Assembly: GCA_010093605.1 (NCBI GenBank)
Contig: MU004193.1
Coordinates: forward strand, 1,309,520 to 1,373,519
Reading direction: 5' to 3'
Length of the DNA stretch: 64,000 nucleotides
From: Lophium mytilinum
Taxonomy: Eukaryota > Ascomycota > Dothideomycetes > Mytilinidiales > Mytilinidiaceae
Made by a program: the position numbers and the translations under genes. The notes beneath the pieces were generated by a model. The model searched no databases. It was not told the DNA's origin and was given only the letters and a program-made list of their open reading frames with translations. Shown in pieces: positions 32,842 through 46,397 of the stretch. Every line of letters starts with the position of its first letter. Position 1 is the stretch's first letter.

Positions 32842-35800
32842 ATGGCCGAAGAATGCATCAACCGAATCCCAGACGCTTCGGAGTCAAATAATCTACCAGG
32901 AGGAGGCCTCGGCCCTCGACTGGAATCCACCGAGGCATTTCAGGAGCCTCCTGATATCGAGGACGTCGAGTTCCGCTATTCTCTTCTTGGTGGGTCTCTT
33001 TGCCAACTTATGCCCCTCTCAATACCCCTACCTAAGTGATACTAGATAAGCTAAAGTCGGAGGAATGCATCTCAATACCTGAAGAGGCAAAGCAAAAGTC
33101 CAGGGATCCATACCCATATGTATCGTTTGGGGACGAAGGTACAACCGGAAGTGTCACCGCATACGGAGATCTCATGCAGATCACTCAGTTTCTCGAGTTG
33201 AGCCGCTCAGGTTTCTTCTCTGTGGATCTTCCTCAAGTGCCGGAGCCGTACTTCGTTCAGGATCGAACACAAACACTCATGGATATTCGCAACCGCAACT
33301 ACACAGGTATATATGCGATTTTACAAGGAGTAGACTTTCCCGATGAGTCTTCAGAAATGAAGGTAGAATTCATCCACGATCGGTGGCCACTCTTCACAAC
33401 GAAATACGACTATATCACATTCAAAATCCAACATGTCGCATTTCAAGGTACCGTCTTTCAGCAGTACCATTATTCGACGGAGAAGGAACCTTTTGTAGTC
33501 CCCTCAGGCTTCAAAGTTTCAATATCAGCGGACTTGCGAATACGAGACTTGGACTTCATCGATCCCCAATACAAATTCAACGAAGAAGACCAGCCATCAG
33601 ATAACTATTCTCATCGTCTCAGCAAGAGTAAACACGGTTTCATTCTGAAGCACACGGGCTTAGTGTCGGACGACGATTTGCAGCCGCAGAAGGGAACCAA
33701 TGATTCCGTCGCTTTGGCCGTCTCCATTTTTGTTAACGGCGAACTGCAGGAGCTTGTTCAAGATTCCGAAGAAGATTCCGAGGATTGGTATTTCACCAAA
33801 CCCGGGAAGGGGTTCTTGATGGAGCCGTCAAAGCCCTTGCAGATAACAGTGGCTTTCAAATTGCTGCCATGCAAGAAAGATTGGGATGGCGGCAATTTTC
33901 CGATCACACAGCACAGCCTTCGCGAAATGCACAAGATGTTGGAAGCAAGTTCATTTACAAGACTAAAGCTGTCAGAAAATGATCTTCACATGGACTTCGT
34001 CATGCGACGAAATTTGGAGCATATACTCTCGGTTTGCAGTACTCCAGTGCCTCATACGTGTCGAAAAGGCTGTGAGGACGGAAAGCTATGCCCAGAGAAG
34101 ACAGCCATTGCTTTAACATGTGGAGATTTGTCGGGACATCGAATCGTCACATCAGCAAGTTTGTAGGTCAGACAGGACTGCTCAATTCCTCATTTAGCTG
34201 ACTAGTCAGTTTTGCTTTCCAATTCCTTCTTTCGATGTTCAAGTACCTCGAGAAATTCCGAAATCAGGCAGCCGCAGAACGCCATCCTACTCATTGCAAG
34301 TGCAACCAAAATGACAGAGCCGCCTGCGAATGGATGTTCTCCGGCTTGTTACAACGAAGGATCAAGGAAGTATGCAGGATGCACTTAATCTGGATAGGGC
34401 AAGCTGAAATAGTTGATGCCTGTTTTGGAGCGAACTACTGGGCCACTGGCAAACAAATCGCTGCAGCAGACACCCCCAGCTTGAAAGCTCTGACGGACAC
34501 ACCATTTCAATTAATAAAACTTGCTGATTTCAGGACGATGTTCAAACATAGTAAGGACGAAAAGCTCGTTAAGGCTCTTGAGCCTCTTCTTGAGCCTCTT
34601 GTGGGGCCTTGGATCAAGTCAATAGACACTGATAACGGACGAGAGTTTTACGCGTTCCCTCATCCTACAAGTATCCGCGCTGGAGTTCAAGAATTCCGAT
34701 TAGAAGACCATGTTTGGATTTGGAGAGCCTTTCAGTCGGTCAAGAGCCTTGGCCTTGGGAGCAAGTTGGAGAATTTTGAGCGTCCCCTGAGGCCAGGTGA
34801 TCTCAACACGGAGAGAGCGGCAAAGATCCCCCTGTCCTCGGACTACTCTCCGACAGTGTTTCAACGACATGTCCTGCGACGATTCACCACAGAGAATCCT
34901 GTTTCTAGACAAAGAATGCTTGCTGTTGCACGGTCAACGTCTGATAACAGATTTTATCTCCATTCTCGAGATACTGCGTTGCTCTACACAGAAACCTCTT
35001 CATTTTTTGCCAAATCCGGCACTTTCTGGAAAGCTACTATCGATGCACAGAGATTCCATGACGAGAACCAGGATTCAAGATGGGATAACCCGTTGCGTTA
35101 CGCGCTGGCCTTCATGATGGGTAGAAAAGGCCTTCAGATCAACGACAGATTGCCGGATGATCTTTCTAATGCTGCGAAAGACCTTTTGCTGCAGAGTTCG
35201 TCTGCAAATGGGCTCTTCCCAGGCGCGCTGAACGCAGAGACCAAGGAGCCCGAGCTCTTCCGAAACGAAGCACAAAGAGACTTTTATTGGCACCGAACCT
35301 TCGAAGTTCCTTACATCCTCTGGCACTTCAATTCAGAAAACCAAAAGGCCGAGGATTTTGGGATGTCTCCACCAAATCCGAGCAACAAACCTGCTGGACA
35401 GACAAATGAAATACTAGCAATATCACTAGCCTCGGGGTTGCACTCTACTCAACTGGAGATGAAGAGATGGATGCCTTTCAATAACCTCATTGTTCAAAAG
35501 AGCATAGTTGACTTGTCGGATGAATGGTTGTACAACCTGCCGAGTTTCCTAGATTTCACGCCGTCTGTCAATGACAAAGACGATGCAGAAATTAATGAGA
35601 AAGACGCCACAGACCACCAATTCAGGGGTGTCATCATCGACATCCCCAAGACTGAGCACAACAAAAAAGGCAAAAGTCAACCATACAGTAATGAAGGTCC
35701 ATGGAGTAACTTCGAGGTCTTGTGCAACAAGGAGATGTATGAGAAGCTTAAAGAACGGCGTACAGCAAAGAGCGCCAAGAAGAGGCTTATTTGGTCTCCA

Positions 35801-37249
35801 AATGCTAACCACTCGACTAAAAGGCTCTGCTGCCTTACATCTACCGGCGATGAGAAAGAATCCTTAGGGCTGTTCTACGACAGACACCATGTTAAGCTGA
35901 AATACTTATTCGATGAAGTAACGGCAACTGCGAACCTATGGACGACCGAGTTCCATTTGTCTTCTTATGAACTGCTCAAACCTTATCAAGACAAACAAAT
36001 GACTGATCTGGTGTTTCTAGGAGGCGATAGGGTAATTAGGAAGGCAGGTACAAGCTTCCGATTCGTTGGGGACTTTTTTGATCGCTACTGGACTTGCCAC
36101 GTTCTTGAATCCGAAGAGGACCGCAATCAAGGAATTGCAACGCGCCTCAAAGAGCTTATCGAGCCGAAGAGGCTATTACCTAAGGTCGAGCGGCGCAAAG
36201 AGCCGTGGAGACAGCGGAAGGTGTTAGAACTTCTTCTGTTTGACCGAATGCTCAAGAAGATAACGGGGCGTTACGAAGACATGATTGCGGAGACGAGTAG
36301 GCGACTCAGTGATTTATTTCCGCATACGACCACTGGTAAAGACGACCCCAAGAATATCATATTAGTCTCAAATGGATTATTCTCCGCGCCGATGAATAAC
36401 GATGCCTACCTGACTTTTAGTAAGGAATGGCCTCCCTTTCAATATACTTTACAAGTCATGGAAGAAGACTTGAAGGACACCCTAGAGAAGATCGACTTAT
36501 GGAGGGACCGTGAAGTAGCTCGACAGCCTGAGAGACCGCGCTGGACAAAGAACGACGAGAGTAGATATCGGGCAACGATAACTAAGCTCACGACTTCGAA
36601 TAACAATGAGATCCGAGATTTAAATCACTACCGAGCCACCATCCAATCTCTGAGAACGTCCCTCACGAGCGGGCTGGAGTCAACACGAAACGAACTGAGC
36701 TTCCGAAGCGCAGAGAACGTGCGTTTCTTCACCTACATCACGGTCATCTTTCTTCCACTTGGATTTGCTACAGCAATTTTCAGTATGGGCGACTCTTCTC
36801 CTAAACGCAAGACCTTGAAGGCCATGGTTGTCACGGCTATCATCACTTTACTTCTCACTATTGTTGTGCTGGTCAGCGTGCACACCTTGGAAAAAGCGCT
36901 CTTTCAACCTGTTGTCAAGATTTCTCGCCGATTGTCAAGGAGGCGCGTAGCACGGCCGGACAAATCAACGCCCTACAATGGGAGCTCGTCGTTCGACTCG
37001 TTACCAGAGTTCTCGGAACGCTCATTTACACAGGATGAACGTGGGTTCCCTTGTAGAAGATCCAGTGGAACAGAGGACGTAGCATCTGAAAGTCAAGATC
37101 AACCGGATACACCTTCTGGTGGCGAGCATACTGCAGGCAGGATACCCGGGAGCTGGGGACTTTGGGTTGGAGATTCGCGAAGAAGGAGGGAAACAAGAGA
37201 AGCGAGGATGCCGGACGATCCCAGGCTTGAAGAAGGAAAGCCAAATTGA
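32842..37249 (+). CDS. Large CorA-like membrane protein (1,434 residues)
   Basis: One gene in three exons: 32842..32989, 33046..34162 and 34210..37249. The second intron (GTAGGT, CTGAC branch, CAG) fuses what look like two separate reading frames. Residues 1-420 are a soluble beta-rich part I do not recognise, ending in a cysteine-rich stretch (CRKGCEDGKLC, then HCKCNQNDRAAC across the splice). The middle (about 430-1240) is mostly helical with charged repeats such as KALEPLLEPL. Two C-terminal helices (FFTYITVIFLPLGFATAIFS and MVVTAIITLLLTIVVLVSV) mark the CorA-like transmembrane part. The GMN pore motif is replaced by IFSMGDSS, so ion transport is uncertain. A polar cytosolic tail of about 100 residues follows. 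Large proteins of this kind recur in filamentous ascomycetes without an assigned role. Confidence 0.8.
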
Positions 37250-37654: not shown

Positions 37655-38715
37655 ATGGAACCCCTAGTGCCGCAGACGGACACCTCCTTCCTGAGCGGCC
37701 TCGCAAGGTCCGTTCAAGCTCTGAAATCACTCTCGGCTTTGAATGCCAAACGTCTTTTCAGGAAAGCATTCACAAATTCAATAAGCGTGGCTGAAACCAC
37801 CCAGTTTCCACAACTCTCCCCATTTCTCCGACGTAACCATCCGCCTCCTCGACGCCTTCTCTGAGCCCGTTTACTCACTCCACGCACACAAGCTGGTCCT
37901 GAGTGCACACTCGCAAATTTTTGCAAACATCTTCAACGAGGAGCTTCAGGTATGCCTTCCTGCTCCAACGTCTTCACGTACTTTCTCACGCCTCATAGCA
38001 ACGATGGGCCCCAGTAATCGACATCCACGACGACGACCCCACCGCTTTCCTGGCTATGTTAGAGTACATGTATAGCGGCAGCTACAGTATCCCCGCGTCT
38101 ACATCTAGCTCACGCAGCTCTTCCCCAACCGGATCCGCGGAAGTAGACATCTCAGCGACCGATCTGATCTTCCACACCCGCCTCCACGCCCTCGCAACCA
38201 CCTACGCCATTCCTACCCTCCAGAACCTGTGCGCTAGGAACTTCGCTCTTGCATCAACCCCACCAAAGTCACCATTTCCTACCCCAACATGGTTCACAGC
38301 CGTGGAGCTCCACTATACGCTCCTCTGCCCTTCTTCCTCTCTTTCATCATTGATGATCGACACACTGGACCCTTTGAGCCTCGCCATCGCGCGCCAGATC
38401 TACTCAAATCGCACCGTTCTTCTTCGCGCAAGCTTAGAGGCTAGGGCAATGCTGAGGGAGCTGTTGGTGCGGTTTCCGCAGCTAGGAGCAGACGTGACGG
38501 GTGAGGCGAGGAGGGCGTGGAAAGAGAGCCCAAGGGGAGGGACGTTGATCGCATGCAAAGGGTGTAGGAGGTGGGTGGTGGCGTGTGTGGCAGAGGCGAT
38601 GATTTGTTGGAGGTGTGGGGAGGGTGTCGTCGGTGGTATCCCAAATGAGGCGAGGGACGGAGACAAGAAGGTAAGTAGATTTGGTAAGAAGGGAGGGTTT
38701 GTGTTGGGGAGGTAG
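37655..38715 (+). CDS. BTB/POZ domain protein
   Basis: 304 residues from exons 37655..37707, 37805..37949 and 37999..38715. After a short N-terminus the BTB fold runs through HFSDVTIRLLDAF, HAHKLVLSAHSQIFANIF and IDIHDDDPTAFLAMLEYMYSG, a dimerisation and cullin-adaptor module. A Ser-rich loop (STSSSRSSSPTGS) separates it from a helical back half resembling the usual BTB tail. Near the C-terminus CKGCRRWVVAC and CWRCG could form a small zinc site. No Kelch, MATH or ankyrin domain follows. Partner unknown. Confidence 0.85.
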
Positions 38716-38935: not shown

Positions 38936-41900
38936 TCAAGCTCTTATCCCATCCCTCGGCAAAACCGTCCACCTATCCAAAAGCACGTCCACAATATCCT
39001 CCTCTTCCTCCTGTTTATCTTCCGGTTCATCTCCAATTGTCATACTTCCGCGAGAGTACGCCGACAACGGACCAAGCAGCCCTTGTCCGACGTCCTTGAC
39101 CAAGTCACGCTCTTCCACCACCGTCTTCTCACTAGTTCCTCGATCCTGTTCGGCATCAACCTTCTGTCGTTTCAGACCCCCTTGGGGGAAAGAGCCCTCC
39201 TCTGGCTCCACCTCCGCCACCCTCTTTGTAGCTTTCCCCTCCTTCTTAGCCTTGTCCACACGAATTCCAGTAATTTCATCTCGCCTTACAGGCGCCAATT
39301 TCGCATGATCAAACCCAGTCGTCTTCCGTAACGAAGGGCTTTCCGCATGAGGATTGGAAGGCGCAACGTTCTCGCCAGAAGTGCCGCTGCTGCTCCTCAC
39401 GTCCTCGATTTGCTCGGCTGCACGTGCAATAACAAAGCCAGTACTCGATTCGCGCCTTGCCGTTGGCTCACTCGGGGTGAGGATTAGACGATCGTGTCTG
39501 GGTAGTCGAGCAACGGGGTTGGTGACGAGGTGCTGAGGTGCTATCTCCATCACGCCCGAGACGCCAGACGGCACTCTTTCGCTGGTATCTTTTTTCCTCC
39601 TTTGAGCGTCAAGGACCCGTTGGCGGAAACCCTTCATCCCCAGTGAGGAGACAGGTTTGGGATCCGACGGTATCTTGCTAGTCGGCTTGGCGTAGTGGAG
39701 CGGATCATCCTCCACGAGCTCGACATCCTGGGCGTTGATCCCATGGCCGTTCTGCTGCACCAGCGCGGACACGTTCTTGATGGAAGCCTCAGGCTGAGTG
39801 CGCTGCGCCTGTGGGTTCTGCATATGCGCCGGGTTCCTGTCCATTGGCATGCCTGGCTGTAGCCCCAAGGAGCCGAGCATCGGCCCGGCCTGATGTCTTT
39901 GCTGCGTCACCATGTTGCTCGCGGCCAGTTGCTGTTGTTGTAACTGCAGCCGCATCTGGTACTGGCGCTGGGCTTCCTGCCGTCGGCTCTGCAAGTTCTG
40001 TGAGAGCGCGACAGGCTGGACGGGAAACGAGCCACCGCCAAAGTTCTGGTTGTATCCCTGCGGCATCGGCGAGCCTTCGGTCTTGTTCTTCCGCGCCGCG
40101 TCTCGTAGTATTTCTTTGTAGTCAGAGGAGAGATGAGAATGAGAGCTGAGATGAGATCGAAGATGATCAGCCAGTGGAAAACGACGCGGACAGTAGGAAC
40201 ATTGAAATCTCTTCGTGAGGATATGTTGCTCCAAGTTGGGTGCCGCAATTAGATCGCGAGCTGGGACCGGAGGGCCTTCGGGATCTTCCATATCGAGGTC
40301 AAGGTCCTCTTCGAGGGTGTCGGCTGGTGGATCGATATGACACGAGGGAATCTTTTCCTTCACATCGTACGCCACTCGTTTCTTCACTCGGGGACTATGA
40401 CGTATTAGCAATGTGATGGGTAGGCTGAATCTTTTCAATGTTCCAACTTACTTTCTGACCTTATCTTTCATAGACTTCTTCTCTTTGCGATTTGTCGAAT
40501 CCGATATATCGTTTTGTCGCCAGATACTAGACGGCGAAGAACGACGGGGTGAATCTGCGGGCCGCGCCGATGTTGAAATATCAGACGTGGAGCGGCCGCG
40601 ACTTCGCTTACGGTTACGATCTAGAGTAAAGCAAGTCAGTTTCAAAAGACGAGCAGAGGTAGGTGTGGTATACTCACCTCGATCAGGCGGCCTGAGGGCG
40701 TCTATTCTTCTATCCAGCTCGTCGCTTGATTGACGAGATGGGGGTGCGAATTCGGTATTGACTTCCTGGGGGACTATCTCCTCCATATCTTCCTCCTCGT
40801 CGGCCTCCGAGCCAGAATCCGAAATGAGAGCTTGTTCGCCGACCAGCCGAGCTATTTCTGGCCGGTTCGGGTCCATGAAACTCATCAGAACGGTGTCTCC
40901 CTGGCTCGGACGAGTGTTGCGCCGATTAGGTTTCTTTCGCTTCACATGAACATGAGGCGAAAGGGGTCTATATGGAGCATGGCCAGCAGACAACTTAGGT
41001 ATACGCTCTTCTGTCCTAGCGTCAACTCGAAGTTCCTCTTTCTCTTCCGAAGGCCGATACTCAGGGCTAGCTAGACTGAAGGCATCTTTCTGTGTGCTCG
41101 GCTTACGAGGGGATACATAACCCGATCCTTTTCTTTGATCTGCAAGGGTGGCATCGCCGTCCATGGTCTGACTTTTGGTGATCTTTGCCCCGCGGCGACG
41201 CTTCTTCGGTACGGGCGACTCGTCGCCATCAGTGTCGATAGCGGCAAGCCACTGTTCCTCTGTAAGCGAGTCATCTTGTCTAGCCTGGGTTGTCTCGCGA
41301 GCGCCATAACTATGGTTCTCTTCGTCTCGAAGTCCTGCCTCGGGGTTGTTGCGATTTTCTTCTGCACCACTGAAATTAAACGGGCTCTTAGCTTTCAGTG
41401 TATCTTCAACGTGGAGAAAGGAGTCAAAATCGAAACTCTCGAGGACATCCGGCCCATAAAATGATGGATAGCCAGGATCGGTGAACTGATCATGGTTAGA
41501 ATTGTCCGCTCTTTTCTCGGCATGATATCTCACCTCTTCGCCAATATTTCCGAATGGGGCACTGGAACCATGCATGGGAGGTCCTGGCACTGGCGGTGGA
41601 GGTGGTGCGGCAGCAAGTGTTTGTCCCGTACTTTAGGACGTCAATAGCTGCCACGGAATCTTGCTAGAGTAGGATTTTGCATAAACTTACTGGTCTCGAC
41701 TGTCTTCGGAATTCATGACAACGTCCGTATAAGTGGATGTCGGAGGAGCTTTGAGTAGTGACGATGATTGAGCCTGATCTCTATCCGTATTAGGTGTCGA
41801 TTCTGGACCTAGTAGTAGATTCGTTTCCTCATTTCCGTCACTGATGACATCCCCTTCTTGTTTCTTGGCATCAACATCTTCGATTTCCTCAGGCCACAGA

Positions 41901-44900
41901 TCACCTTGAGTTTCGTCGTCATCCGCATCATCGGAGGTCTCGTCTTCGGATGTCATAGTCTGCATACGCTCGAAATTGCCAATAGTAGAGTTACGAAACA
42001 GGTTCGTGGGTTCTTCTCGATCCACGTCGAGGTCTTTTGATGTCGGGGCGTCGATTTTAATTCGTGAGTAATGGAACTGATAACGGGGTTCTGCTGTCTG
42101 GAAGGGGGGTAACATATGGTTCTGGCTCTGGCCTTCCGTGGTCCCATCCTGGCTCTTGAGAGGTGTCTCGACTGTTTCTAAAGCATGCTGGTCAGCTTCT
42201 GCAGGTTCGTATCAAATAGTGACACCTGGCAGCACATACGCAAACGATTCTCCAAGCTCTTAACAAATCCTCTATTGGGTCTGCTCTTCCACCGCACCTC
42301 ATCGTAGCCACATCCACGACCCCGCTTGGTGCACCTGCTGCATATGGGCCTCGCGCCATCGCAGCTTGACTTCCTCTTCCGGCATGTCATGCACGCAACA
42401 CGCTTGTATGCATTAAGTCGGTTACCCTTCAGTTCATCAACTTCCTTTAACGACTCTTTGGTACCTGCCTCGCCATTGCTGCCACGAATCGCTGAGTTAT
42501 TCGAGTCCTGGGATTGCCTGGCTCCAATTAGCGAGCTGGAGAGCTCCGCGAGCTTGTAGGTTGATCCTTCTTTCTCTGCAACGGTGGCATTCTGGTCTTG
42601 TTGCTCAAGAACACGGGATTGAATTTGATGGCCTTGCTCACGGTCCTCGGATTGGACCCTCCCGTCTGATTCTTGCCTGCTTATCGTGTAGCGTCTTAAA
42701 CCTTCTTGCTCGAGAGCCTGCAGCTTTTGTGCATATTCCATTGGCGTCCGATTCTGAAACTCGACCTCTGTATCCGGCTTTAGTAATAGTTGGCTAGGCT
42801 CCTCCCCGTGATGCGAAGCTGGACCGGTAGAAGTGTATCCGGTAGAGGAAGAATATTTTGGAGGACCACTCCATGGGTTGTTGAAATCGATACCATTGTA
42901 GCTGGTCATGCCATCGTGGACACTGGCGGGAAGAGCAGCCGACTGCTGCCAAGTAGACGCGCCGTAGGCTTGCTGCTGCTTGGTAGCATAAAAAGCTGTT
43001 TCTGATGCGCAGATGTCTCCACCCCGCCGATCTACGCGGTCTCGATCCTCCAGTGCCAATCTGAGGCGTTTTTTTTGCGACTCGAGGAGCATGAGTTGCG
43101 TTTCGTAGTCTTGTAGTGCTTGGCTTTTCGGGGCTCCAGTCTCAGGCGCATTGACTCCTGCGACTGACGCAAGGGTGGCAGAGCTTTGCCATGGACTCTG
43201 AAATACAGTTTGGGCGAGTTCAAAGCGAGAATTTGACTTCTGAGAACTCTGCAGAGGTTCCTTCTTGTTTGGGATAGCCTGCTTCCACCTTGGCACATTT
43301 GACTCAGCCTCCTGCACAGGAGAGATGCCTCCAGGTGCAGTTCCTCTTTTAGCTGCCGCGATCTCTCTCTTCGTAGGGTGCTTGAGGACCATGAGTGACA
43401 TCTGATAGTCACGGAGCGCCTGGTAATCTATAGGTCCGGGTGTATATTGAGCTGCCTGGTGGTTTATAGGTCCAGGTCTGTATTGAGCCGCCCTTGCTTC
43501 CTCTTGCTGTTGAGATTCCTTCTGGCGCTTTTTCCATTGTTGCTCGAGTAGCATGGGTTGATATGAGTCGGCTTGTTGTAAGTGATTTTGAAGCATCGGG
43601 TTCCCTGGTGATGGTAGCATTGGTGAGGTCTGTTCATACGACGGGTATGTTCGCGTTTGCTGGGTCGGAAATGGCATCGACTGATCTGGAAGCTGTACCT
43701 GGACAGCGCCAGGCAAGCTAGATTCGTTGTGATTACTCGACTGAGGGACTTCTTGCACATCTTCTATTCGTATCATCTTTAATCGCTTCTTATTCTCTTG
43801 GGGCCCACCGCAAATTAGTCTTAGCTGATACTCGTGTAACGCATGATCTTTAGCTTGAGTGTCTAGTTGGCCATGGGTGTTGCCACTCTCGTTCTCGTGG
43901 GCGTCGGCCGGCTCATGGTCTAGTGTCGCGCTTGAATTCGACATGCTCATGCGACGATCGAAGACTCGTGGTTCAGCAAAACGTGGATTAGCAAAATGTA
44001 TATCTGAGGTCCGTGGATCAGGTATTCGAACGTCAGAGGCTCGAGAGTCTGGTAGCTGGGCGCCAGGTTCCTGTGAAGACGAGCATCTTCGTTGATATGG
44101 GTCGCCACTAGACCGAATTCCAAAACCCCTGGTCGCAGTATCTAGCTCCTCATCTCTCCCCTCAGGTGGAGATTCCAGCTTATGACGTTCCAATCTCCGT
44201 TTGAGAATGCGATGGAACTGCTTAGGATTGATGAACAAGGGCGGGTCTTCTACTGGTCCATTGTTGATGCCTGTGCGCGCAGGTCTTTTGCTTTCCGATG
44301 GATCGAGACCATGAGGGTTGGAAAAGGTCACGGGAAATTCGTCGTCGCCCGATGCACCCGCCAAGAATGTATCAAAGTCGAAATTTGCGAGAACATCGTA
44401 ATCATCCGCGTTGCCAAGATCAAGGCTGGGTGCGTTGCTGGATACATTATCACTTACCTTCGAAAGAGACGCATCCATTGGCGTCAACGGTGTCGAAGGC
44501 ACAGGAGTCGGCTGGGACGCGATACGCTGAATTGCCATTTGTTGTTGCATTTGCTGGTAGGCCTGGTTGGCAGTGTATTGACTGGCATGTTGCTCAGCCT
44601 GAGCCTGGGCCTGCGCCTGCGCGTATCTCTGAGTCTGAGCCTGAATCTGAGCTGAAAATTGAGCCTGAGCTGGTTTTTGCCGCGGTCGCATCTGCATTTG
44701 TGATAACATGTGTCGTTGCTGCTGAGCCTGCGCCTGAGCCTGCGCCAGCACGTTCCTCTGTGTCTGAGCTGAAGTCTGAGATGAAGCCTGAGCCTGAGCA
44801 TACTTTTGCTGCGGTTGCATCTGCATTTGTGATGGCATGTGTGGTGGCAAGCAGCTTGCAGTCGGAGTTGGGGGCTCCGCTGTGAAACTGCTCAATAATC

Positions 44901-46397
44901 CACCTCCTCCGCTCCGCCGTCGGCCTTCCTCAGCTTCCTCTTGCGCCTCTGCCATCTTTAGTGCAGCCAGACCTGCACCTGCTTCGATATCGCTTTCGGC
45001 ATTGGTATTGTAGATATCAGGAGAAGTGTATGGCGAGATCGCCGGGGGCTTGATGGGACTGTTGTGTATATCTGGAATGAGAGTATGCGTTTTTGGGTCC
45101 ATATGCCGGGGAGATCGTGCCACGTCGTCTCCCCTTCGATAGCCCGGCCGAACTAGAGATTCCTCAGCAGGTTTCTGTTGTTGTGATAGATGCAATGCTT
45201 CTTTCTGCTGGGCAGCCGGAAGAAGGAGCCCTTGTCTCGGATTTAGCGCTTCTTCTGAACCTAAATCAACTTCAGAACGCGGAGGCACAGCGTCCATGGC
45301 GATTAGCGAGTCGATCGATGGTAGTGTTTGCTGCTGCACAAGCGACTGAGCACTGCGATAGGTTTTAGGTGAAAGGCCTTCCTCCGCCTTAGCCATAGCA
45401 GGATGACGAAGTATATCTCTCTCAATCTTCACGCAGAATCGATGATAGGCTTTATGCACGCGACGTTTCGAACGGCGAGCGGGTGTGGCCCCCTCAACAA
45501 GGCTTTGGAAAGACTGGATCCTCCTCAAAAGCTTTTGGACATGCTTGGTGCATTTTAGAAGGTCCTCGGGGGTGATTGGTTCGTCATCGCTGCCTGAATC
45601 GGACCCCCCAATGGTATCATCGGAATCGTCGGACAAAGGATCAGGGGTATTCCCCTTTAAAGCAGTAATCTTTCTTATGGAGACAGATGCTGCCAAAGGC
45701 GGATGCGCTATAAGGTTGATGGTAGAAGTTCTTGAAGGATTTGTCGAGCCGCGAAGGGTTTCGGAGTCGTCCAGAGAGATATTGTCAAGCTTTTTCTCTA
45801 GCAAGCTGAGGTTCTCCAATGATTCTTGATGACGTTTGTGAAGAGCACGGATGTTCTCTCGCTCCTCACGAAGCAGGGAGGCTTCCTTTCTGAACAGAGT
45901 TAGAATACATCTAGGCAGACACCGTGGAGTACAAACCCTCTGGCCCTATCTCCAGCAAATGAAAGCACTTTGAGAAGAAGCAACAGACTTGTCTTCAGAC
46001 TGTCTAATCGTCTCCTCATCAACTCGACTCTTTGCTCTTTGAGCGGCCATGCCAGCCGGCCGAGAGTCGTGATTGATTTCTTTCCATCTTTTCCAATCTT
46101 GGTTCGTTTTTCAACGACCTGGCGAATATCACCGAAGACAGTCTCACATCGTTTCAGGATGTTTTCTGCATCGTTCAGAGCTGCTTTCGAAGCTAAGCAC
46201 CTCGTGTCTTCCTCTTTCAGAACGTTTCCGACGCTGTCCAGCACATTGGCAGTGAGAGCAACATCACCGGCGATATCGGTGATATCCTGATCCGCGCGTG
46301 AGGATGATTCTGCGAATGTGTATAGCGTGGTAGAGAGTTTCACGCCAGCGCCTGCGATGCCAATAATTGACGCCGTAAGCCCTATCAGTTCTGCCAT
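38936..46397 (-). CDS. Giant multi-domain regulator: STAND-type N-domain, NF-YA-like helix, Zn2Cys6 and C2H2
   Basis: About 2,392 residues in six exons: 46397..45937, 45889..42240, 42177..41691, 41630..40678, 40620..40452 and 40394..38936 (7,179 bases, all phases close). Residues 1-150 match the fungal N-terminal domain of STAND proteins (MAELIGLTASIIGIAGAGVK), followed by a coiled coil. Residues about 506-592 are Gln/Ala-rich with a 43-residue tandem duplication. At about 703 lies PLFINPKQFHRILKRRLERH, nearly the NF-YA/HAP2 subunit-association helix, without the DNA-binding half. At about 1318-1349 is a Zn2Cys6 cluster (CMTCRKRKSSC, CSRC, GRGCGY) with a linker and coiled coil; at about 1970 a C2H2 finger (FQCSYCPRRFPLADHLRSHL). 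The motif VLxxFDFDxFL occurs twice (about 651 and 1591). Probably a nuclear regulator; targets unknown. Separate genes would need several coincidental splice-phase matches. Confidence 0.8.
44578..44835 (-). repeat. 129-bp coding tandem duplication in Gln-rich region
   Basis: Two adjacent 43-codon copies, each starting SQMQM and carrying AQTQR and AQAQAQA. Period measured from CATTTGTGAT at 44695 and 44824 is 129 bases. In frame, so the protein is lengthened and not broken. Confidence 0.8.

What the first reader, a model, noticed from the sequence alone, without database searches (positions are those of the whole stretch)
38936..46397. A 2,392-residue protein joining STAND-type, NF-YA-like, Zn2Cys6 and C2H2 modules
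Seen: six exons whose phases all close into one frame, with a fungal STAND N-domain at the front, an NF-YA/HAP2-like helix at about 703, a Zn2Cys6 cluster near 1318-1349 and a C2H2 finger near 1970. Known: STAND N-domains normally head NLR-like receptors; Zn2Cys6 and C2H2 are DNA-binding; NF-YA helices bind the HAP3/HAP5 dimer. Inferred: a single regulator linking a receptor-type sensing domain to transcription. I am not aware of a described protein with this order.
Basis: partly seen in the sequence, partly recalled or inferred. Interest (0 to 1): 0.85.

Follow-up and report, generated by a model that had tools for sequence, protein, structure and literature searches.

The report
Mosaic gene built from gene fragments
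A fungal gene that starts with a cell-death-type domain appears to have been stitched together, in reading frame, from copied pieces of about a dozen other genes, many of them gene regulators, so it looks like a patchwork of bait or binding pieces rather than an ordinary multi-domain regulator.

Summary
The gene holds up as one minus-strand gene model, 46397-38936. A further in-frame 48-nt intron, at the place of a donor-gene intron, makes 2,376 residues more likely. The four modules are present but weaker than claimed. PF17111 (25.2 bits, cut-off 27.2) and C2H2 (20.8, cut-off 25.2) miss their cut-offs. NF-YA is only the A1 helix, without the DNA-binding A2 half.

A frame-blind DNA search finds pieces of 7 other genes of the same genome at 70-92% identity. 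Protein searches add 6 more genes, some weakly. Donors include SWI1, SNF2, HAP2, a LisH gene, a CRZ1-like gene, RAD52, SAS10 and a RhoGEF. Four introns sit at donor intron positions, so genomic DNA was copied rather than mRNA. Pooled dN/dS of five young pieces is 0.24, so the copies look constrained.

Most likely it is a HeLo-like scaffold carrying captured binding segments as baits or competitors. The mosaic is well supported; the function is inferred.

The parts
38936..46397 (-). whole coding span, 7 exons, 2,376 aa (2,392 aa if the 48-nt intron 41533-41486 is retained)
   Evidence: open frame with a single terminal stop
45937..46397 (-). exon 1: HeLo-like / PigL_N (PF17111-type) helical N-domain; paralogues on C16 and C19 45-46% identical (genome search) or 42% (local tblastn)
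45890..45936 (-). intron 1, 47 nt, GTTTGT..CAG, branch-like CTAAC
44869..45039 (-). captured piece of a RhoGEF gene (RGF3/ROM2-like, C13:1482k), 80% DNA identity over 174 bp
44173..44259 (-). NF-YA/HAP2 A1 helix (subunit-binding), without the A2 DNA-binding half
43945..44160 (-). captured piece of an Arg/Asp-repeat protein gene (C13:1700k), 84% over 68 bp and 71% over 144 bp of the gene
43033..43119 (-). ALQDYxxQLMLLExQ motif of a LisH gene (SOM1/FLO8-like, C11:916k); degenerate copies by eye at 43419-43363 and 43842-43780
42821..42984 (-). captured piece of a probable transcription factor gene (C1:2150.8k; Fungal_trans match below cut-off), 88% DNA over 164 bp
42161..42426 (-). Zn2Cys6 cluster plus linker, nearest to a Zn2Cys6 gene on C8:1119k (70% DNA over 173 bp); spans intron 2
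42178..42239 (-). intron 2, 62 nt, donor site GTATGT at the same position as in the C8 gene
41855..42049 (-). piece related to a very long acidic reading frame (C6:2036k, TOM1/HUWE1-like by recall), 45% in the genome search, 37% in the local tblastn; partly low-complexity
41631..41690 (-). intron 3, 60 nt, GTAAGT..AAG; least certain junction
41360..41740 (-). C-terminal piece of the LisH (SOM1/FLO8-like) gene on C11 with the FDFDSFL motif; contains the intron 41533-41486
41486..41533 (-). additional in-frame 48-nt intron at the position of a LisH-gene intron
41102..41323 (-). piece of an SNF2-family ATPase gene, from the end of its SnAC domain (C17:1131k)
40779..40943 (-). captured piece of an unidentified gene on C2:2577k, 92% DNA over 165 bp
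40136..40783 (-). CRZ1-like region in two stretches (FAPPSRQ segment at 40783-40679 next to intron 40677-40621, and 40306-40136 with one C2H2 finger at 40201-40139); the SAS10 piece lies between them
40351..40461 (-). SAS10 C-terminal piece copied together with its 57-nt intron (40451-40395), 89% over 111 bp
39671..40095 (-). captured piece of SWI1 (C3:1148.5k); 40095-39728 is 87% identical over 368 bp without gaps and ends just inside the ARID match
39266..39568 (-). piece of the RAD52 C-terminal region (C16:548k)
38960..38992 (-). C-terminal tail VDVLLDRWTVL shared with other PF17111-type loci

Best explanation
This is one gene on a HeLo-like (PF17111-type) N-domain plus VDxLLxxWTxL-tail scaffold. 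Its long, mostly disordered middle was assembled by repeated in-frame insertion of short genomic-DNA copies of about 13 other genes, introns included, and then kept under purifying selection. SHOWN by sequence: the pieces and their donors, introns at donor positions, differing divergence of the pieces, and constraint on those tested. INFERRED: disorder (from composition), the direction of copying (from conserved full-length genes into this one), and function. I think the pieces serve as binding surfaces cut off from the DNA-binding or catalytic parts of their parents. Examples are the NF-YA A1 helix without A2, SWI1 with only the start of ARID, SNF2 without ATPase and RAD52 without its N-terminal domain. 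The protein would then occupy or mimic the partners of HAP3/HAP5, SWI/SNF, the LisH regulator, CRZ1 and RAD52 as bait or competitor, with the helical N-domain as signalling output and the intact Zn2Cys6 cluster possibly placing it on DNA. I put the mosaic structure at about 0.9 and the bait/competitor function at about 0.35; the score below is for the whole statement.
For: Frame-blind DNA search of the whole gene: 9 matches, 1 self and 8 non-self in 7 genes, E from 4e-124 to 6e-10. Protein matches in 6 further genes: HAP2, RAD52 and CRZ1-like, SNF2 and the LisH gene, the C6:2036k frame. Control: the 1,010-aa Q-rich SWI1 frame searched the same way hits only itself and this gene (one control). 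Introns at donor positions: the C8 Zn2Cys6 gene, the LisH gene and the CRZ1-like gene, and SAS10 at 89% across the intron. dS differs by piece (0.27, 0.35, 0.38, 0.41, 0.64, 0.92, 1.1, 2.5, saturated in two), and the SAS10 piece sits between two CRZ1-like stretches, which suggests stepwise capture. Pooled dN/dS is 0.24, bootstrap 0.16-0.35, 305 codons of 5 pieces; a drifting copy should give at least 0.5. Similar loci: a C6 locus with kinase, bromodomain and SH3 matches carries the LisH-gene C-terminus at 93.6% DNA over 345 bp and matches three more genes, and the C16 PF17111-type locus carries 250 bp 86% identical to a Zn2Cys6 gene at C19:788k. An isolated NF-YA A1 peptide is enough to bind NF-YB/C (PMC6900064, passages). 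PF17111 is listed as HeLo-like in PMC9815663 (passages).
Against: No transcript, binding or phenotype data. Only 1,046 of 2,376 residues are covered by donors at E <= 1e-3, and 148 of these are the N-domain. PF17111 and PF00096 are below their cut-offs. The HeLo reading rests on paralogues and literature: the single-sequence AF2 model of exon 1 is four helices at pLDDT 62, and Foldseek found no match at E <= 0.001. No nucleotide-binding domain. Some donors are not known nuclear regulators (RhoGEF, repeat protein, C2 gene). Six donors are seen only at protein level, some weakly (CRZ1-like finger E = 0.004, SNF2 E = 5e-6, an acidic C6 match E = 2e-7). dN/dS of the SAS10 and CRZ1-like pieces was not computed. 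No ortholog in any other fungus could be examined.
Confidence: 0.5

Rival explanations
1. Passive patchwork: breaks in a disordered, repeat-rich middle were repaired with templated genomic filler. Only in-frame, open inserts survived, and the pieces have no specific function.
For: Piece sizes (68-368 bp) and genomic-DNA templates with introns fit templated repair. In Magnaporthe oryzae, break repair inserted coding sequence from elsewhere in the genome (PMC9684475, passages). Native-frame capture is partly forced by the need for an open frame (my argument, not computed).
Against: Pooled dN/dS 0.24 with 0 of 2,000 bootstrap values at or above 0.5. By my own count 7 of 13 donors are transcription or chromatin genes (names from Pfam matches plus recall); no genome-wide background was computed, and disordered regulators may simply be tolerated better.
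Confidence: 0.3
2. One reading: a working transcription regulator that couples a receptor-type N-domain to DNA through Zn2Cys6 and C2H2.
For: The Zn2Cys6 cluster is intact (PF00172 33.6 bits) and followed by the same linker as in the C8 gene. FDFDSFL-type segments and basic stretches are present.
Against: No Fungal_trans domain in the gene's exons and a single C2H2 finger below cut-off. NF-YA A2, most of ARID and the SNF2 ATPase are missing.
Confidence: 0.2
3. Two adjacent genes wrongly joined: one ends after the Zn2Cys6 exon or at the stop near 41687, the other carries the C2H2 half.
For: Intron 41690-41631 has an AAG acceptor, and the nearest LisH-gene intron does not lie at the matching place.
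Against: The last exon carries the tail VDxLLxxWTxL, found in 711,460 six-frame residues of fetched, partly overlapping sequence only at PF17111-type loci (window, C16, C19, C4); that the C16 and C19 tails belong to those genes is inferred from position. Intron 2 joins Zn2Cys6 and linker as in the C8 gene.
Confidence: 0.1
4. A rolling-circle or cut-and-paste transposon gathered the fragments, as Helitrons and Pack-MULEs do, and was then turned into a gene.
For: Fungal Helitrons are reported to capture genes and gene fragments (PMC4289320, start of abstract in the listing).
Against: The gene has a native scaffold with paralogues, pieces of different divergence and one long open frame. Transposon ends were not searched for.
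Confidence: 0.05

Closest known systems
Integrated decoys of NLR receptors (plant NLR-IDs; putative CHK2-derived kinase in Sordariales NLRs, PMC12258605, passages seen)
   Same: Host protein pieces fused to a protein with an immune-type N-domain; a kinase-bearing mosaic locus also exists in this genome (C6)
   Different: No nucleotide-binding domain or repeats found here; many small pieces of about 13 genes rather than one folded domain; no effector known
HeLo-like proteins (PF17111, named Helo_like_N in PMC9815663, passages seen; PigL_N in the Pfam copy used here)
   Same: N-terminal helical domain type, 42-46% identical to two paralogues in the genome
   Different: Below the Pfam cut-off; no amyloid motif looked for; very long mosaic C-terminal part
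NF-YA A1-only competitors (synthetic NF-YA peptides, PMC6900064, passages seen)
   Same: Only the NF-YB/C-binding helix is present, DNA-binding part absent
   Different: Natural, embedded in a 2.4-kaa protein; binding not tested
Helitron / Pack-MULE chimaeras of gene fragments (PMC4289320, PMC3288121, PMC1947982, listings only)
   Same: Genomic fragments of several genes joined
   Different: Native scaffold with paralogues, pieces of different divergence, constrained long open frame; no transposon ends examined
Zn2Cys6 transcription factors
   Same: Intact CX2CX6CX6CX2CX6C cluster plus linker
   Different: No Fungal_trans domain; cluster region captured from, or related by duplication to, a C8 gene

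Membership tests
HeLo-like / PigL_N (PF17111) | profile score over the curated cut-off | tested here: not met
   25.2 bits against 27.2 on the spliced N-terminus; clear paralogues on C16 and C19
HeLo-like / PigL_N (PF17111) | four-helix bundle | tested here: inconclusive
   four helices predicted at pLDDT 62; no Foldseek match at E <= 0.001
NLR / STAND receptor | NACHT, NB-ARC or other nucleotide-binding domain | tested here: not met
   Pfam scan of six exon pieces, E up to 10, and of the spliced N-terminus, E up to 0.1
NLR / STAND receptor | C-terminal ankyrin, WD or TPR repeats | tested here: not met
   none
NF-YA / HAP2 | A1 subunit-binding helix | tested here: met
   PF02045 29.8 bits against 27; HapB chain 4g91_A E = 1e-6
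NF-YA / HAP2 | A2 DNA-binding segment | tested here: not met
   only profile positions 2-25 of 56 matched; the genome's own HAP2 matches 2-56
Zn2Cys6 transcription factor | binuclear zinc cluster | tested here: met
   PF00172 33.6 bits against 21
Zn2Cys6 transcription factor | Fungal_trans middle homology region (usual, not universal) | tested here: not met
   no match in the exons
C2H2 transcription factor | finger(s) over the curated cut-off | tested here: not met
   one finger, 20.8 bits against 25.2; the CRZ1-like donor shows two matched stretches at 54.4 bits
Integrated decoy | piece derived from a host protein | tested here: met
Integrated decoy | fused to a receptor with a nucleotide-binding core | tested here: not met
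Integrated decoy | piece binds or is modified by a pathogen effector | not testable with these tools
   no partner data
mRNA-mediated (retro) chimaera | introns of the donors lost | tested here: not met
   four introns at donor positions
Helitron or other transposon capture | terminal signatures and flanking duplications | not tested
   no transposon-end search was run

The most novel reading that the evidence does not exclude
A fungal 'poly-decoy' sentinel. A HeLo-like death-domain scaffold has repeatedly copied short, exposed binding segments of core nuclear regulators (CCAAT complex, SWI/SNF, a LisH regulator, CRZ1, RAD52, SAS10) into one protein, so that any agent attacking those regulators also hits the sentinel and triggers a response. 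The C6 and C16 loci would be further members of a genome-wide, DNA-copying bait-capture process.
Probability: 0.2. Interest if true: 0.93.

Novelty: new variant of a known kind. Interest (0 to 1): 0.76.

Why it matters
It is a readable case of a gene built by serial capture of coding DNA: about 13 donors, introns carried along, pieces of different divergence, all in one constrained frame. That makes it possible to test how such fragments are acquired, whether regulators and disordered segments are favoured, and whether fungal death-domain proteins collect baits as plant immune receptors do. It also warns that domain lists of such proteins (NF-YA, C2H2, Zn2Cys6) can mislead, because the domains may be partial copies of other genes.

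Tried and rejected
A 2,399-residue model (intron-2 acceptor at 42199) was dropped for 42178, which aligns without a gap to the C8 gene. The other splice sets were dropped as weaker by splice-site quality. Whole-frame pairwise alignments over-extended into low-complexity sequence, so identities and dN/dS were recomputed on core pieces.

Rows dropped before counting. In one search (24 rows: 1 self, 23 others) 18 rows lie over the Zn2Cys6 cluster only and were treated as generic zinc-cluster matches, leaving 5 rows in 4 genes. A second weak HAP2 match over residues 881-916 (E = 0.002 in a small database) was not counted. From the pooled dN/dS I left out the pieces with saturated or very short alignments (HAP2, RAD52, SNF2, C6:2036k, Zn2Cys6; single values), and I computed none for SAS10, the CRZ1-like or the LisH-gene pieces.

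The sigma-70 and terminator scan says nothing for a fungus. Foldseek on the exon-1 model gave generic helical bundles. The paper searches showed no description of such a gene. They cover only the held open-access library, by fixed terms, and several listings were partial (15 of 66, 15 of 16, 10 of 13, 10 of 81, 8 of 280), so absence is weak. Ortholog scans of the viral and prokaryote collections were not run, since the gene is fungal; no fungal collection beyond its own genome was on hand.
Full report
WHAT WAS CLAIMED.

THE GENE. The frames, splice sites and phases are as described. With introns 45936-45890, 42239-42178, 41690-41631, 40677-40621 and 40451-40395 the protein is exactly 2,392 residues with one terminal stop. 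I first missed the 42178 acceptor and obtained 2,399. Comparing the junction with the Zn2Cys6 gene on C8 shows that the later acceptor fits: this gene then reads LENRLQTVETPLKSQDGT, and the C8 gene, spliced at its own sites by eye, reads LEARLQQVETMLKSQDAT. A sixth intron, 41533-41486 (48 nt, in frame), is likely, because the LisH donor gene has its intron at the same place. That gives 2,376 residues. The weak junction is 41690-41631 (AAG acceptor). That the two halves belong together is supported by the C-terminal tail VDxLLxxWTxL. In 711,460 six-frame residues of fetched, partly overlapping sequence it occurs at four distinct places: this gene and the PF17111-type loci on C16, C19 and C4. 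Two further rows are this gene fetched again. In the C4 gene the motif lies inside a long frame rather than at the end. The link between N-domain and tail on C16 and C19 is by position; their exons were not modelled.

THE MODULES. Zn2Cys6 scores 33.6 bits (cut-off 21). NF-YA scores 29.8 (cut-off 27) but only over profile positions 2-25 of 56. The C2H2 finger scores 20.8 (cut-off 25.2). The spliced N-terminus scores 25.2 against PF17111 (cut-off 27.2). Its identity as a divergent member of this group rests on two paralogues, C16:614k and C19:781k, at 45-46% identity. PMC9815663 calls PF17111 HeLo-like (Helo_like_N) and describes HeLo domains as cell-death-inducing four-helix bundles (passages). 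No nucleotide-binding domain was found. The genome holds two PF02045 matches, this one and a full HAP2.

THE MOSAIC. Searching the gene's pieces against its own genome gave an unexpected result. A frame-blind DNA search of the whole 7,462-bp span returned 9 matches. One is self and 8 are non-self, in 7 genes: SWI1 (ARID protein) 87% over 368 bp; an unidentified C2 gene 92% over 165 bp; a probable transcription factor on C1 88% over 164 bp; a RhoGEF 80% over 174 bp; SAS10 89% over 111 bp; an Arg/Asp-repeat protein 84% over 68 bp and 71% over 144 bp; and a Zn2Cys6 gene on C8 70% over 173 bp. Pfam supports ARID, RhoGEF with the RGF3 domain, and Sas10; the C1 gene's Fungal_trans match is below cut-off, and the repeat protein and the C2 frame have no match. 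Protein searches add HAP2, RAD52 (E = 1e-13) and a CRZ1-like gene (E = 0.004 for the finger region), SNF2 (E = 5e-6) and a LisH gene of SOM1/FLO8 type (E = 1e-6), and a very long acidic frame on C6 (E = 2e-7). That is 13 donors, not counting the N-domain paralogues. The names SOM1/FLO8, CRZ1, ROM2, SWI1 and TOM1/HUWE1 are partly from recall; Pfam gives LisH, C2H2, RhoGEF, ARID and nothing for the C6 piece scanned. Local tblastn at E <= 1e-3 covers 1,046 of 2,376 residues, 148 of them the N-domain. The hits are not simply due to Q-rich sequence: the 1,010-residue Q-rich SWI1 frame, searched the same way, hits only itself and this gene. This is one control.

HOW IT AROSE. The copies were made from genomic DNA in at least four cases. 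The SAS10 piece runs through a 57-nt intron at 89% identity. Introns at donor positions are also present in the Zn2Cys6, LisH-gene and CRZ1-like pieces. Four of the six introns of the 7-exon model are thus at donor positions. In the five pieces drawn the borders lie inside exons of this gene. In the C1 donor, however, the piece starts within a few bases of what looks by eye like an acceptor site, so exon shuffling is not excluded for that one. dS between piece and donor ranges from 0.27 (C2 gene), 0.35 (SWI1), 0.38, 0.41 and 0.64 up to 2.5 and saturation, and the SAS10 piece lies between two CRZ1-like stretches, so captures look serial. The estimates are rough because the pieces are short. Break repair with genomic filler is a plausible route. 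In M. oryzae it inserts coding sequence from elsewhere, with 2-3 bp microhomology at three of four junctions in two mutants (PMC9684475, passages). The direction of copying is inferred from the donors being recognisable full genes.

IS IT CONSTRAINED? Over 305 codons of five young pieces (SWI1, C2, C1, RhoGEF, repeat protein) the pooled dN/dS is 0.24 (bootstrap 0.16-0.35; 0 of 2,000 replicates at or above 0.5). If the copies were drifting, the pairwise value should be at least about 0.5 even with frozen donors. The SAS10 piece is also young and was not included. This argues that the sequence of the pieces matters. It does not say what they do.

IT IS PROBABLY NOT ALONE. The C16 PF17111-type locus has ULD_2, Vac7 and Zn2Cys6 matches, all over cut-off. 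Its Zn2Cys6 region is 86% identical over 250 bp to a Zn2Cys6 gene at C19:788k. That gene lies about 6 kb downstream of the C19 paralogue's N-domain, so local duplication plus rearrangement is an alternative to capture there. A locus at C6:648-658k combines kinase, bromodomain and SH3 matches. It carries the LisH-gene C-terminus at 93.6% DNA identity over 345 bp, intron region included, and one of its frames matches C8:597.6k (85% and 68%), C1:1405k (61%, with two stops inside) and C19:1331k (59%). The last two could be ordinary domain relatives. Exon structures of these loci were not modelled.

WHAT IT MAY DO. Several donor pieces are binding or disordered segments separated from the catalytic or DNA-binding parts: NF-YA A1 without A2; SWI1 to just inside the start of its ARID match; SNF2 from the end of SnAC without ATPase; RAD52 C-terminal; one finger of the CRZ1-like array. 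The Zn2Cys6 cluster is the exception and is intact. Isolated NF-YA A1 peptides of 29 down to 16 residues bind NF-YB/C (Kd 0.7 to 2.9 uM for four of them; shorter or differently cut ones bind worse), and a stapled version inhibits assembly (PMC6900064, passages). I therefore favour bait or competitor over activator. A sensor reading (integrated decoys) has a fungal precedent in Sordariales NLRs with a CHK2-derived kinase, described there as putative (PMC12258605, passages), but this protein lacks the NLR core. Passive accumulation in a tolerant disordered region remains the main rival. It is weakened by the dN/dS result and, less surely, by the share of regulators among donors (7 of 13 by my count, no background computed).

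VERDICT. The interpretation as a single designed regulator is only partly supported. The mosaic made from many genes is the real finding. The paper searches showed no description of it; they cover only the held open-access library, and some listings were partial.

Noticed in passing
L047 (G000:C6:648000-657900): Another mosaic-looking locus: kinase, bromodomain, LisH-gene C-terminus (93.6% DNA) and SH3 matches, plus a zinc-ribbon match below cut-off, in neighbouring minus-strand frames; upstream C2H2-like sequence resembles, by recall, fungal NLR-associated regions (no Pfam match).
   Followed up: partly
L065 (G000:C16:613900-620900): PF17111-type paralogue locus with ULD_2, Vac7 and Zn2Cys6 matches and the same VDxLLxxWTxL tail; its zinc-cluster region is 86% DNA-identical over 250 bp to a gene at C19:788k.
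   Followed up: partly
L060 (G000:C4:2048k): PF17111-type gene where VDRLLRMWTTL sits inside a long open frame rather than at its end.
   Followed up: no
window 34205-37249 (+): Long frame next door with a CorA-like match (31.1 bits, cut-off 27) in its C-terminal part.
   Followed up: no
window 37785-38715 (+): Two overlapping frames that look by eye like a BTB/POZ-type protein interrupted by an intron; the second frame (37999-38712) had no Pfam match, the first was not scanned.
   Followed up: no
G000 whole genome: 25 match rows to PF17111 at E <= 0.001 (at least two rows belong to one gene), the best 184 bits on C10.
   Followed up: no
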